64,000 nt of DNA from Bacteroides sp. 43_108. GTDB lineage: Bacteria > Bacteroidota > Bacteroidia > Bacteroidales > Bacteroidaceae. The stretch lies in the NCBI GenBank assembly GCA_001915545.1, contig MNQS01000120.1, forward strand, positions 1 through 64,000. The letters are read 5' to 3'. Below the pieces are notes generated by a model. The model saw nothing but the letters and a program-made list of their open reading frames with translations, was not told where the DNA came from and ran no database searches. This document shows, piece after piece, positions 30,058 through 44,236 of the stretch (positions are counted from its first letter, which is position 1; each line of letters starts with the position of its first letter). The position numbers were made by a program, and so were the translations under genes.

Positions 30058-31343
30058 AGATCCCTGGTCCAAGCCAGGGATGACGGTCCATTAAAGGACC
30101 GTGTATGAAAGCTGCAGACCTCGTTATTTGCATAGCATCAACTATGCTGACAGCAATGTAGGCGATACCGCAATGTATCAATGTTCGTCATCCCTGGCCA
30201 GGACCAGGGACCTCATGCCAACGATAAGCACTAAACTCGACTCAAAGGATTGAGAGGCCGTGGATGAAAGTTGCAGACCTCGATATTTGCATAGTATCAA
30301 CAACGCAGACAGCAATGCTGGCAAGGCCACAACATCTCAATGTCACGTCATCCCTGGCTAGGACCAGGGATCTTATGCTTGCGACATGCACCAAACTTGG
30401 TTCAAAGGCTTGCGAGTAGAACAATGCTCAGGAAAACTAAAAGATATTGTACTTTTTAGATCCCTGGTCCAAGCCAGGGATGACGGCCTTAGAAAAAGGC
30501 CGTGTGTGAAAATTGCAGAACTCGCTATTTGCACAGCATCAACAATGCTGACTGCTATGTAGGCGATACCGCAATGTATCAATGTTCGTCATCCCTGGCC
30601 AGGACCAGGGACCTCATGCCAACGATAAGCACTAAACTCGACTCAAAGGATTGAGGCAGACCTCGATATTTGTATAGTATCAACAACGCAGACAGCAATG
30701 CTGGCAAGGCCACAACATCTCAATGTCACGTCATCCCTGGCTAGGACCAGGGATCTTATGCTTGCAACATGCACCAAACTTGGCTCAAAGGCTTGCGAGT
30801 AGAACAATGCTCAGGAAAACTAAAAGACATTGTACTTTTCAGATCCCTGGTCTAAGCCATGGATGACGGTCCATTAAAGGACCGTGAATGAAAACTGCAA
30901 AACTTGTTATTTGCATAGCATCAACAATGCTGCCTGCTATGTAGGCGATACCGCAATGTATCAATGTTCGTCATCCCTGGCCAGGACCAGGGACCTCATG
31001 CCAACGATAAGCACTAAACTCGGCTCAAAGGATTGAGAGCAGAACTGTGCTTATGAAAGCAATACTGCTTTTAGATCCCTGGTCCGGACCAGGGCTGACG
31101 GCTTTGAAGAAATGCCGTGTATGAAAGTTGCAGAACTCGTTATTTGCACAGCATCAACAATGCTGACTGCTATGTAGGCGATACCGCAATGTATCAATGT
31201 TCGTCATCCCTGGCCAGGACCAGGGACCTTATGCCAACGATAAGCACTAAACTTGGATCAAAGGCATGCGAGTAGAACTGTGCTCTGAAAAGCACACAAG
31301 ACATTTCACTTTTTAGTTCTCTGGTCCTGGCCAGCTATGACGG
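30058..31343. repeat. Left block of palindrome-bounded repeat modules
   Basis: Each module is bounded by a left palindrome A (ATCCCTGG, TCCAAG, CCAGGGAT, then GACG) and a right palindrome B, which is A inverted with only a few differences. A starts: 30058, 30458, 30841, 31073 and a decayed copy at 31315. B starts: 30186, 30346, 30587, 30729, 30969 and 31202. A-to-B distance is 128-129 bp whenever both are present. Just inside A lies a GC hairpin (ACGGCCTT / AAGGCCGT), then conserved sequence including AGCAT-CAACA-ATGCT. Modules ending at 30372 and 30755 lack A: their joins fall near 30255 and 30653. The first 400 bp and the next 383 bp are two copies of the same two-module unit. No protein-coding potential is credible inside. 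Confidence 0.92.
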
Positions 31344-31395
31344 CCTTGGTAAAGGCCGTGCATGATATGAAACTTACAGATAGAAAAGGAAGCAG

Positions 31396-31755
31396 TTAAT
31401 CAATATATTGATGCCTCTGCTTTTTATATTCATCTGTAACAGCTTTTACAAGCTCCTCTGTCAATCCTATGCTCTCGCTAAGGTCGTTCCATTCAGGATT
31501 ATCTTTCTCAATAAGAACAATTTTCCAATCACGCTTCCATTTTTTCAATTGTTTTTCACGATTTATGGCATTAACAAAATCTGTATAGGTTTCAAAATAA
31601 ACAAGTTTCTTTACTTTATAAAGATTCGTGAAACCGGAATTTATACCTGCCTTATGTTCAGCCACTCTGCGCAGAAGATCATTGGTAACACCAATATACA
31701 AGACACCATTGCGTTTGCTTGCCATTATGTAAACAAACCCTCTTAGTATATTCAT
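31396..31755 (-). CDS. GIY-YIG nuclease family protein inside the repeat array
   Basis: 119 aa, a single small GIY-YIG domain (UvrC N-terminal/Slx1-like fold). Motifs: V8-Y9-I10 in place of GIY, Y20-I21-G22, then LLRRVAEHK (candidate catalytic Arg 29/30, His 34), E67 in NREKQLKKWKRDWK (metal ligand) and N86 in NPEWNDL. All expected catalytic positions are present. Such proteins nick DNA using one divalent metal ion. There is no added DNA-binding domain. The gene lies between a decayed palindrome (31315-31343) and an intact one (31787-31815), with module copies on both sides, so its DNA target may be the palindromes; this is inference from location. The C-terminal tail (EYKKQRHQYID) is basic and polar. 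Confidence 0.9.
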   Translation of the reverse strand: MNILRGFVYIMASKRNGVLYIGVTNDLLRRVAEHKAGINSGFTNLYKVKKLVYFETYTDFVNAINREKQLKKWKRDWKIVLIEKDNPEWNDLSESIGLTEELVKAVTDEYKKQRHQYID

Positions 31756-31786
31756 CTCCCAAATGTTTTATGTTATTACTTTTGTT

Positions 31787-32407
31787 AGATCCCTGGTCTA
31801 AGCCAGGGATGACGGCCTTAGAAAAGGCCGTGTGTGAAAGTTGCAGAACTCGTTATTTACATAGCATCAACAATACTGACTGCAATGCGGGCGACGCCAC
31901 TGTGTCTCAATTTCACGTCATCCCTGGCCAGGACCAGGGACCTTATGCCCGCGATAAGCACTAAACTCGAATCAAAGGCATGCGAGTAGAACTGTGCTCA
32001 TGAAAGCAATACTGCTTTTAGATCCCTGGTCCAAGCCAGGGATGACGGCCTTGAAGAAAGGCCGTGTATGAAAGTTGCAGAACTCGTTATTTGCATAGCA
32101 ACAATTATGCAGACTGCAATGCGGGCGACACCACTATGTCTCAATGTTCGTCATCCCTGGCCAGGACCAGGGACCTTATGCCCGCGATAAGCACTAAACT
32201 CGGCTCAAAGGATTGAGAGCAGAACTGTGCTTATGAAAGCAATACTGCTTTTAGATCCCTGGTCCAAGCCAGGGATGACGGCCTTGGAAAAGGCCGTGAA
32301 TGAAAGTAGCAAAACTCGTTATTTGCATAGCATCAACAATACTGACTGCAATACGGGCGACGCCACTATGTCTCAATGTTCGTCATCCCTGGCCAGGACC
32401 AGGGACC
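31787..32407. repeat. Right block: three tandem repeat modules with 233-bp period
   Basis: Palindrome A starts at 31787, 32020 and 32253; inverted palindrome B starts at 31916, 32149 and 32381. Period is 233 bp with very little divergence, so these are the youngest copies. Each A-to-B module is about 155 bp, and the B-to-next-A spacer (about 77 bp) is itself conserved and ends in a small hairpin AAAGCA / TGCTTT just before A. B equals A reverse-complemented at about 24 of 27 positions, so each module has terminal inverted repeats that are also imperfect palindromes. The block ends 58 bp before the stop of the licD-like gene. Confidence 0.92.
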
Positions 32408-32465
32408 TTATGCCCGCGACAAGAACTAAACATACTATAAGAAACTACCAGCACATACTGCACCT

Positions 32466-44124: not shown

Positions 44125-44236
44125 ACTGCCGATAATTTGCACAAAATAAGCACTCGCACTGCCGATAATTTACACAATACAGGCACTAGTACTGCCGATA
44201 ATTTACATAAAACAAGCACTCACACTACCAATAATT
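44125..44236. repeat. 33-bp tandem repeat, 3.4 copies
   Basis: Units at 44125-44157, 44158-44190 and 44191-44223 plus a partial fourth at 44224-44236. Each begins ACTGCCGATAATTT and ends AAGCACT plus three bases, with 3-6 differences between units. It lies 14 bp after the GH31 stop. No spacers or flanking cas genes, so not a CRISPR. Confidence 0.85.

What the first reader, a model, noticed from the sequence alone, without database searches (positions are those of the whole stretch)
30058..32407. GIY-YIG nuclease gene embedded in an array of nine palindrome-bounded modules: a candidate REP/RAYT-like system with a different enzyme
Seen: nine copies of a module, each with 27-bp imperfect palindromes in inverted orientation at its two ends, tiled over about 2.35 kb, with a 119-aa GIY-YIG nuclease gene inside. 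All expected catalytic residues are present. Known: GIY-YIG domains nick DNA, and small ones occur as homing or repair enzymes; REP elements with RAYT transposases show that short palindromes can be spread and copied by a chromosomally resident nuclease. Inference: the nuclease acts on the palindromes to expand, delete or move them. From memory only, inverted 'tcatccc...gggatga' palindromes also occur near small GIY-YIG genes in other bacterial groups; I cannot verify this here.
Basis: partly seen in the sequence, partly recalled or inferred. Interest (0 to 1): 0.78.

Follow-up and report, generated by a model that had tools for sequence, protein, structure and literature searches.

The report
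Nuclease gene partnered with DNA palindromes
A small DNA-cutting enzyme gene sits among short tagged DNA palindromes of a class whose mobilising enzyme has been unknown, and its relatives in many bacteria lie beside such palindromes too, so it is a strong but untested candidate for the enzyme that spreads them.

Summary
Window 30058-32408 carries 17 copies of a tagged palindrome (9 on +, 8 on -) and a 119-aa GIY-YIG nuclease gene. The palindromes are CGTC-tagged REPs, a class described in 2013 as lacking a dedicated transposase; the nuclease is a strong candidate for the missing companion. Of the 80 closest nuclease loci scanned, 63 (12 named phylum-level groups) have a CGTC/TGTC REP within 300 bp, against 76 of 392 control ORFs in the same DNA; UvrC (0 of 18) and other small GIY-YIG genes (0 of 8) had none. 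Where REPs lie on both sides, the nearest pair points its tags outward in 32 of 50. Two copies in one genome match from tag to tag (within about 10 bp) and not beyond. Nuclease and REPs co-occur across genomes (odds ratio about 10 in two classes), but not strictly: REP-rich genomes without the gene exist, half of the Bacteroidia genomes with the gene gave no REP match, and extra gene copies are often REP-free. Best reading: a REP/RAYT-like system run by a GIY-YIG nuclease, gene-free REP dimers being its non-autonomous form. The association is strong; that the enzyme cuts and moves palindromes is inference.

The parts
31396..31755 (-). GIY-YIG nuclease gene, 119 aa
   Evidence: PF01541 E=5e-18; invariant motif residues
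31790..31814 (-). CGTC REP just upstream of the gene, tag pointing away from it
   Evidence: 1 mismatch; covariance model R1 E=7e-4
31318..31342 (-). degenerate CGTC REP downstream of the gene
   Evidence: 3 mismatches
31202..31226 (+). CGTC REP; with 31790-31814 it makes the outward-tagged (HH) pair around the gene
30061..30085 (-). CGTC REP
   Evidence: R1 E=4e-4
30186..30210 (+). CGTC REP
30346..30370 (+). CGTC REP
   Evidence: R1 E=0.0045; fold
30461..30485 (-). CGTC REP
   Evidence: R1 E=7e-4
30587..30611 (+). CGTC REP
30729..30753 (+). CGTC REP
   Evidence: R1 E=0.0045
30844..30868 (-). CGTC REP (2 mismatches)
   Evidence: R1 E=0.44, weak
30969..30993 (+). CGTC REP
31076..31100 (-). CGTC REP (2 mismatches)
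31916..31940 (+). CGTC REP
32023..32047 (-). CGTC REP
   Evidence: R1 E=7e-4
32149..32173 (+). CGTC REP
32256..32280 (-). CGTC REP
   Evidence: R1 E=7e-4; fold
32381..32405 (+). CGTC REP
32278..32297 (.). second hairpin (ACGGCC...GGCCGT) that overlaps the tag of a minus REP; like ones at 30483-30503, 31340-31359, 31812-31831, 32045-32065
   Evidence: joint fold of 32253-32300 at -16.2 kcal/mol, z -5.9
31785..32431 (.). tandem part of the array, period 233 bp
   Evidence: Tandem Repeats Finder, 2.8 copies, 91% matches

Best explanation
This is a local array of CGTC-tagged REPs with their companion gene, a GIY-YIG nuclease of a clade that travels with such REPs across bacteria. Shown: the clade's association with REPs, an outward-tagged REP pair at the boundary of the gene unit in one pair of genomic copies, matched REP ends, gene-free REP dimers in genomes that hold the nuclease, and co-occurrence across genomes. 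Inferred: the nuclease recognises the hairpin with its one-sided (C/T)GTC tag, on DNA made single-stranded by replication, and nicks at or near the tag. The freed or copied REP-to-REP segment is then inserted elsewhere by replication or repair, without target duplication. A unit with the gene between the REPs is autonomous; a unit with a short spacer (an HH dimer) is the non-autonomous form. Repeated local copying or unequal recombination builds arrays such as this one.
For: 63 of 80 loci have a REP within 300 bp against 76 of 392 control ORFs; with a relaxed scan added, 73 of 80 against 144 of 392. Alphaproteobacteria sample: 23 of 30, against 0 of 18 UvrC and 0 of 8 other small GIY-YIG; Bacteroidia 12 of 27. 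Nearest REPs are tag-outward at 32 of the 50 loci with REPs on both sides. Same-genome copies L234/L235 (77%) match from tag to tag and not beyond about 10 bp outside, and both REPs of a unit changed in concert. In L002/L016 the left boundary is also at the tag. In 20 chosen regions HH dimers end at the tag; HH dimers are present in one and absent from another Bradyrhizobium genome at three sites. One Sphingobium site has three states: unit, single palindrome, nothing. R1 REPs in 38 of 38 nuclease genomes searched, chosen by hand; odds ratios about 10 in Alphaproteobacteria and Bacteroidia. Ends matched within a locus (45 of 83 identical stems; mean 0.89 against 0.64 between loci). Nuclease under purifying selection.
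Against: No cleavage, binding or transposition was observed. Some REP-rich genomes have no nuclease at the cut-off used, and 33 of 66 Bacteroidia and 9 of 43 alphaproteobacterial genomes with the nuclease (E<=1e-20) gave no REP match. REPs are frequent elsewhere in these genomes: other intergenic DNA has 0.85 per kb against 3.87 per kb beside the nuclease, so 0 of 18 and 0 of 8 in the GIY-YIG controls have limited power. Extra nuclease copies are less often REP-flanked: 7 of 13 scored, 7 of 20 regions, 2 of 6 Bacteroidaceae-family loci. Copies within one genome are mostly old and divergent, and no base-exact empty site was found. A GIY-YIG domain alone is a nuclease; I know of no strand-joining activity for it. 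In the window the nearest two REPs point the same way; only the outer pair is tag-outward.
Confidence: 0.65

Rival explanations
1. Homing-like gene drive: the nuclease makes a double-strand break at REP-bearing or empty cognate sites, and recombination repair copies the REP-gene-REP unit in. The REPs are recognition sites or scars, not separately mobile elements.
For: GIY-YIG is a classic homing-endonuclease fold (passages of PMC1564403). At one Sphingobium site the unit alternates with a single doubly tagged palindrome that equals the left half of one REP joined to the right half of the other.
Against: Gene-free HH dimers lie at unrelated sites whose flanks share nothing visible apart from further REP pieces in a few, bounded at the tag (20 chosen regions), which homing at cognate sites does not predict. 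Homing nucleases cut uninterrupted sites and not their own element (PMC1564403 passage).
Confidence: 0.17
2. Host-side hairpin nuclease: the enzyme processes or clears REP cruciforms that stall replication (as SbcCD is thought to do) and is kept near REPs because it regulates their copy number, without moving them.
For: Purifying selection and retention at one syntenic place in five Bradyrhizobium genomes; nuclease genes inside REP arrays.
Against: Does not explain why the gene itself is bounded by REPs, why units with REP ends occur at different sites of one genome, or why the ends match.
Confidence: 0.1
3. Hitchhiking: REPs crowd intergenic DNA for other reasons, for instance as terminators, and a small dispensable gene happens to survive there.
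For: REPs are abundant elsewhere in these genomes (0.85 per kb of other intergenic DNA; 76 of 392 control ORFs have one within 300 bp). Many nuclease loci, mostly extra copies, have none.
Against: Specific to this clade as far as tested (0 of 18 UvrC, 0 of 8 other small GIY-YIG); orientation bias; tag-to-tag homology of copies; 346 of 350 perfect-stem REPs carry the tag on one side only, unlike a terminator.
Confidence: 0.06

Closest known systems
CGTC-tagged REPs (Di Nocera et al. 2013, PMC3733652; includes Neisseria dRS3 and Rickettsia RPE-4/RPE-6)
   Same: Unpaired CGTC/TGTC tag on one side, 8-9 bp stem that begins with AT, short loop, tail on the other side, HH dimers and clusters; reported in Bacteroidetes and other phyla
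   Different: The window's loop is 6 nt rather than 4-5 and its tail is mostly CT rather than CCA. The paper states that these REPs are not associated with transposase genes; the parts and passages that I read name no nuclease for them.
REP/RAYT (TnpA-REP) systems and REPINs
   Same: Short tagged palindromes in inverted pairs, bounding a small enzyme gene, with dispersed gene-free dimers
   Different: Tag CGTC not GTAG; enzyme is GIY-YIG, not a HuH (Y1) transposase; chemistry untested
UPF0213 (YhbQ/YazA-like) GIY-YIG proteins, PDB 1ZG2 and 1YWL
   Same: Single-domain GIY-YIG of about 100 aa; closest solved relatives by sequence profile. The YhbQ/YazA names are recalled
   Different: Distant (E 6e-5 and 9e-4); other small GIY-YIG genes examined in REP-bearing genomes have no REPs beside them (0 of 8), though I did not check that these are UPF0213
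GIY-YIG homing endonucleases (I-TevI type)
   Same: Catalytic fold and association with mobile DNA
   Different: No NUMOD or other DNA-binding domain hit in the window protein; no intron or intein seen at the gene; palindromic ends instead of a homing site

Membership tests
CGTC-tagged REP superfamily | unpaired CGTC (or TGTC) at one end only | tested here: met
   all 17 window matches begin CGTCA; tag unpaired in the folds of two 28-nt copies
CGTC-tagged REP superfamily | 8-9 bp stem with AT as first pairs, loop 4-5, tail often CCA | tested here: inconclusive
   8-bp stem starting AT is perfect in 7 of 17; loop 6 and tail CT differ. A covariance model built without the window finds 8 of 17 copies, 5 below E=1e-3
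CGTC-tagged REP superfamily | inverted (HH) dimers | tested here: met
   alternating orientations in the window
CGTC-tagged REP superfamily | high copy number through the genome | not testable with these tools
   no whole genome is held for the window; 3-155 matches in each of 38 genomes of related nucleases, chosen by hand
REP/RAYT system | GTAG tag | tested here: not met
   tag is CGTC
REP/RAYT system | adjacent HuH tyrosine (Y1) transposase gene | tested here: not met
   the gene in the array is PF01541; the three neighbours scanned are AraC, LicD and CTP_transf_like proteins. The rest of the window was not scanned for Y1
REP/RAYT system | enzyme gene bounded by the repeats, dimers dispersed | tested here: met
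   in related loci; dispersal in the window's own genome could not be tested
REP/RAYT system | enzyme cleaves the repeat | not testable with these tools
   biochemistry needed
GIY-YIG nuclease superfamily | PF01541 domain with the conserved motif residues | tested here: met
UPF0213 subfamily | close sequence relationship to UPF0213 | tested here: inconclusive
   profile match to 1ZG2 at 5.9e-5 only; no tree of the superfamily was built

The most novel reading that the evidence does not exclude
A class of bacterial transposable element whose only enzyme is a ~100-residue GIY-YIG nuclease and whose ends are CGTC REP hairpins: about 350-600 bp as an autonomous unit, found from Patescibacteria to Proteobacteria and Bacteroidota, and the source of CGTC REPs generally, including Neisseria dRS3.
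Probability: 0.48. Interest if true: 0.92.

Novelty: new variant of a known kind. Interest (0 to 1): 0.82.

Why it matters
CGTC REPs are widespread small repeats in bacteria, yet the paper that defined them concluded that they lack a dedicated transposase and proposed that their autonomous elements had died out, or that many transposases move them (PMC3733652). A nuclease clade that lies beside and between such REPs in many phyla makes that question directly testable. If the enzyme mobilises them, a GIY-YIG nuclease would be doing a transposase's work, which to my knowledge has not been described.

Tried and rejected
Rho-independent terminators: rejected, because the tag is on one side in 346 of 350 perfect-stem REPs (overlapping loci are counted more than once) and I see no T-run directly after the window palindromes (by eye).

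Phage origin: one weak tblastn hit in 50,697 phage records.

Base-exact empty sites: sought between Bradyrhizobium genomes, Azospirillum, Bacteroidales L004/L038 and Sphingobium. Presence and absence are clear, but the intergenic DNA is too diverged for exact junctions, and no target duplication was seen in 20 dimers (by eye).

Residue-tag covariation: position 25 (N or S) follows the first tag base; among 30 closest pairs that differ there, 18 go N with T / S with C, 1 the opposite way, 11 have the same tag. It is the strongest of 40 columns, but other columns also show bias, the tree is poorly supported, and the window itself is an exception (N25 with a C tag). I treat it as a lead only.

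Same palindrome in relatives of the window: 0 of 26 genomes, namely the 26 shown of the 399, so the window's REP sequence may be specific to a narrow lineage. Copy number in the window's own genome could not be asked.

Structure prediction was not run, as the fold is clear from Pfam.

An error of mine: an earlier count said 14 of 27 Bacteroidia loci; the recount is 12 of 27, and three further loci were left out because my motif search did not find the gene.
Full report
WHAT IS THERE. The window segment 30058-32408 holds 17 near-identical palindromes, consensus CGTCATCCCTGGC(NN)GGACCAGGGA, 9 on the + and 8 on the - strand, all inside the array and none elsewhere in the 64 kb at up to 3 mismatches; 100 shuffled windows contained none. 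The last part is a 233-bp tandem repeat. Seven of the 17 have a perfect 8-bp stem with a 6-nt loop; as single-stranded DNA such a copy leaves CGTC unpaired, and a copy with a weaker stem folds with 7 bp. The gene 31396-31755 on the minus strand encodes 119 residues with a PF01541 GIY-YIG domain (E 5e-18). It lies between a degenerate minus REP (31318-31342) and a minus REP (31790-31814). The next palindrome outwards on the left (31202-31226, +) completes an outward-tagged pair around the gene.

WHAT THE PALINDROMES ARE. Di Nocera et al. 2013 (PMC3733652; I read parts 1-3 of 8 of the text and found passages) define CGTC-tagged REPs: a one-sided CGTC/TGTC tag, 8-9 bp stems beginning with AT, short loops, predominantly head-to-head (HH, tags outward) dimers, in five phyla including Bacteroidetes, and including Neisseria dRS3 and Rickettsia RPE-4 and RPE-6. 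[quoted passage not shown] A covariance model of such REPs, built from 28 REPs within 400 bp of relatives of the nuclease and none from the window, finds 8 of the 17 window copies, five at E below 1e-3.

THE NUCLEASE CLADE IS TIED TO THESE REPS. A protein search gave 7997 relatives among 7999 candidates scored. With perfect stems only, 54 of 80 have a tagged hairpin within 1 kb, and density falls from 5.6 per kb in the first 100 bp to 0.03-0.19 per kb beyond 500 bp. Allowing one mismatch, 63 of 80 have one within 300 bp; dinucleotide shuffles give 0.06 per kb against 7.4 per kb observed in the first 100 bp. The 63 fall in 12 named phylum-level groups (my grouping of record titles): Pseudomonadota 38 of 51, Bacteroidota 8 of 9, Patescibacteria 5 of 5, Omnitrophota 2 of 2, one of one in each of eight more (Armatimonadota, Fibrobacterota, UBP14, Edwardsbacteria, Planctomycetota, Cloacimonadota, Marinimicrobia, Deltaproteobacteria), and an unplaced MAG 2 of 2; 0 of 1 in each of Deinococcota, Acetothermia and Spirochaetota. 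A stricter control is ORFs of at least 100 codons in the same loci: 76 of 392 have a REP within 300 bp, and other intergenic DNA has 0.85 REPs per kb against 3.87 beside the nuclease. So REPs are common in these genomes, but the nuclease stands out. The 17 misses mostly show variant GTC-tagged palindromes to the eye. With a relaxed scan added, 73 of 80 nuclease loci against 144 of 392 controls score.

FURTHER SAMPLES AND SPECIFICITY. In the 30 best loci from 142 genomes of one class (that of a Bradyrhizobium; 46 genomes had a match; L093 is the same gene as L009), 23 have a REP within 300 bp. In 20 genomes of that class with REP matches but no nuclease of the clade at E<=1e-12, other GIY-YIG genes are negative: 0 of 18 UvrC and 0 of 8 small ones. 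These controls have limited power: at the 19% rate of ordinary ORFs one would expect about 3 and 1 or 2 positives, and for UvrC mainly the upstream side lay in the fetched DNA. In the class of a Bacteroidaceae MAG, 12 of 27 loci are positive; 3 of the 30 fetched were not scored. Of 12 loci fetched from plasmid-collection records (some are mislabelled chromosomes; L085 and L086 are one site in two strains), 7 have perfect-stem REPs close by, 3 have none and 2 only chance-like ones. Extra copies are poorer: in three multi-copy genomes 7 of 13 scored copies have a REP nearby and 6 of 19 fetched were not scored; of 20 regions with further copies 7 hold a REP; of 6 loci found in 399 genomes of the Bacteroidaceae centre's family, 2. 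In Neisseria gonorrhoeae the gene sits inside a dRS3 array, and in a Bacteroidia genome inside an alternating REP array (L230), both much as in the window.

BOUNDARIES AND ENDS. At the 50 of 80 loci with REPs on both sides within 300 bp, the nearest pair is tag-outward in 32 and the outermost pair in 37. In genome G372 two copies 77% alike are homologous from one tag to the other and lose similarity within about 10 bp outside, on both sides. Both REPs of a copy share the same stem, and both differ together from those of the other copy, each with its compensating change. In another MAG two copies (81%) part at the left tag; the right boundary cannot be judged, as one contig ends there. In general the + and - REPs of a locus match each other (identical stems in 45 of 83; mean identity of the best pair 0.89 against 0.64 between loci with the same tag base). 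The tag is one-sided in 346 of 350 perfect-stem REPs (overlapping loci counted more than once).

DIMERS AND SITE POLYMORPHISM. All 38 genomes of nuclease loci that I searched have REP matches, 3 to 155 each at E<=0.1, with 150 candidates scored per genome (113 in one). I chose these 38 of the 80 loci by hand, and 35 of them already had a REP beside the gene, so this shows copy number rather than association. Twenty regions from six genomes were fetched because a + and a - match lay close together. All 20 hold a tag-outward pair, spacers vary, the ends are at the tag, and apart from further REP pieces in a few the DNA outside shares nothing visible and shows no target duplication (by eye). Inserts of 129-175 bp with an HH pair are present in one and absent in another Bradyrhizobium genome at three intergenic sites (four comparisons; a fifth, of 122 bp, showed one REP by the scan), and one of 157 bp in Bacteroidales L004 against L038. 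The nuclease unit lies between sufB and sufC in Azospirillum lipoferum and is absent there in the three relatives fetched. At one site in Sphingobium plasmids four fetched records have the unit (one with a frameshifted gene), two have a single doubly tagged palindrome made of its two outer halves (one of them decayed), and one has neither. The single palindrome could be a deletion scar or a precursor.

CO-OCCURRENCE. Among 142 alphaproteobacterial genomes, taking the nuclease at E<=1e-20 and at least two REP matches at E<=0.01: both 29, nuclease only 14, REP only 15, neither 84 (odds ratio 11.6, p 2e-9). Among 198 Bacteroidia genomes: 28, 38, 9, 123 (odds ratio 10, p 5e-9). Over the 8 and 9 pairs of cut-offs tried the odds ratios are 8.4-14.0 and 7.2-12.2. 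Phylogeny is not corrected for, genome completeness is not known to me (many of the loci's records are MAGs), and the REP search scored at most about 50 or 37 candidates per genome with stricter filters, so exceptions of both kinds are probably inflated. They are many all the same: with one REP match as the bar, 9 of 43 alphaproteobacterial and 33 of 66 Bacteroidia genomes with the nuclease have no REP, and 11 of 35 and 6 of 24 genomes with five or more REPs have no nuclease (at E<=1e-12 and 1e-20; three of the six have a weaker match).

SELECTION AND COVARIATION. dN/dS between Bradyrhizobium copies is about 0.02-0.20 in the 19 of 21 pairs with a finite dS, many of them near saturation; L002/L016 is 0.05, also saturated. 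Over the 97 of 122 loci that have REPs, nuclease identity correlates with REP stem similarity (Mantel r 0.30, p 0.0005, the lowest value 2000 permutations allow) and weakly with the tag base (r 0.10, p 0.0015); related loci are not thinned. Of 82 loci with two or more C/T-tagged REPs 12 mix the two tags. Residue 25 follows the tag base, which is a lead and not proof: the tree is weak.

THE LITERATURE. Eight searches of an open-access library without preprints showed no paper that links GIY-YIG nucleases to REPs; two returned nothing, and of the others I saw listings only (7 to 20 rows of up to 353 papers). The 2006 GIY-YIG survey (PMC1564403, passages only) does not contain 'palindrom'; RepRanger 2025 (PMC12306157, passages only) contains neither 'nuclease' nor 'transposase' at a word start. 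Subscription papers and preprints could hold such a link.

HOW IT PROBABLY WORKS. By analogy with REP/RAYT (recalled, not tested), the one-sided tag next to a hairpin is a strand-specific cleavage signal, and the companion enzyme reads hairpin and tag. The gene-bearing unit is the autonomous element and the HH dimer its derivative. The absence of target duplication would fit insertion through single-stranded or repair intermediates. No step of catalysis is shown. The window array would come from local reiteration of one lineage of dimers, with the gene in one of them.

Noticed in passing
window 30483-30503, 31340-31359, 31812-31831, 32045-32065, 32278-32297: A second hairpin (ACGGCC...GGCCGT) overlaps the CGTC tag of minus-strand REPs, so the tag lies between two hairpins. 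A relative with a 71% identical nuclease (L246) has a similar GGCC-loop-GGCCGTC next to REPs in a tandem of three (by eye).
   Followed up: partly
L191 2464-2492; L042 6699-6729: Doubly tagged palindromes (CGTC...GACG); the Sphingobium one looks like the collapsed remnant of a nuclease unit.
   Followed up: partly
L236-L238 (G344 contig 31): Three nuclease copies within about 8 kb in a repetitive stretch of one Bacteroidia genome, without REPs by my scan.
   Followed up: no
L226/L227; L005, L024, L034, L044: Nuclease genes flanked by longer or imperfect GTC-tagged palindromes (GTCATCGCGA-, GTCATTTCGA-, GTGTCCCGG-like), perhaps further REP classes of the same system (by eye).
   Followed up: partly
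G161: One alphaproteobacterial genome has 10 divergent nuclease copies at scattered sites.
   Followed up: partly
window 44125-44236: Tandem repeat of a 33-bp unit, 3.4 copies.
   Followed up: no
plasmid-collection records NZ_CP119140.1, CP090106.1 and NZ_AP026896.1: Records of 2.2-4.9 Mb labelled as plasmids that look like whole chromosomes.
   Followed up: no
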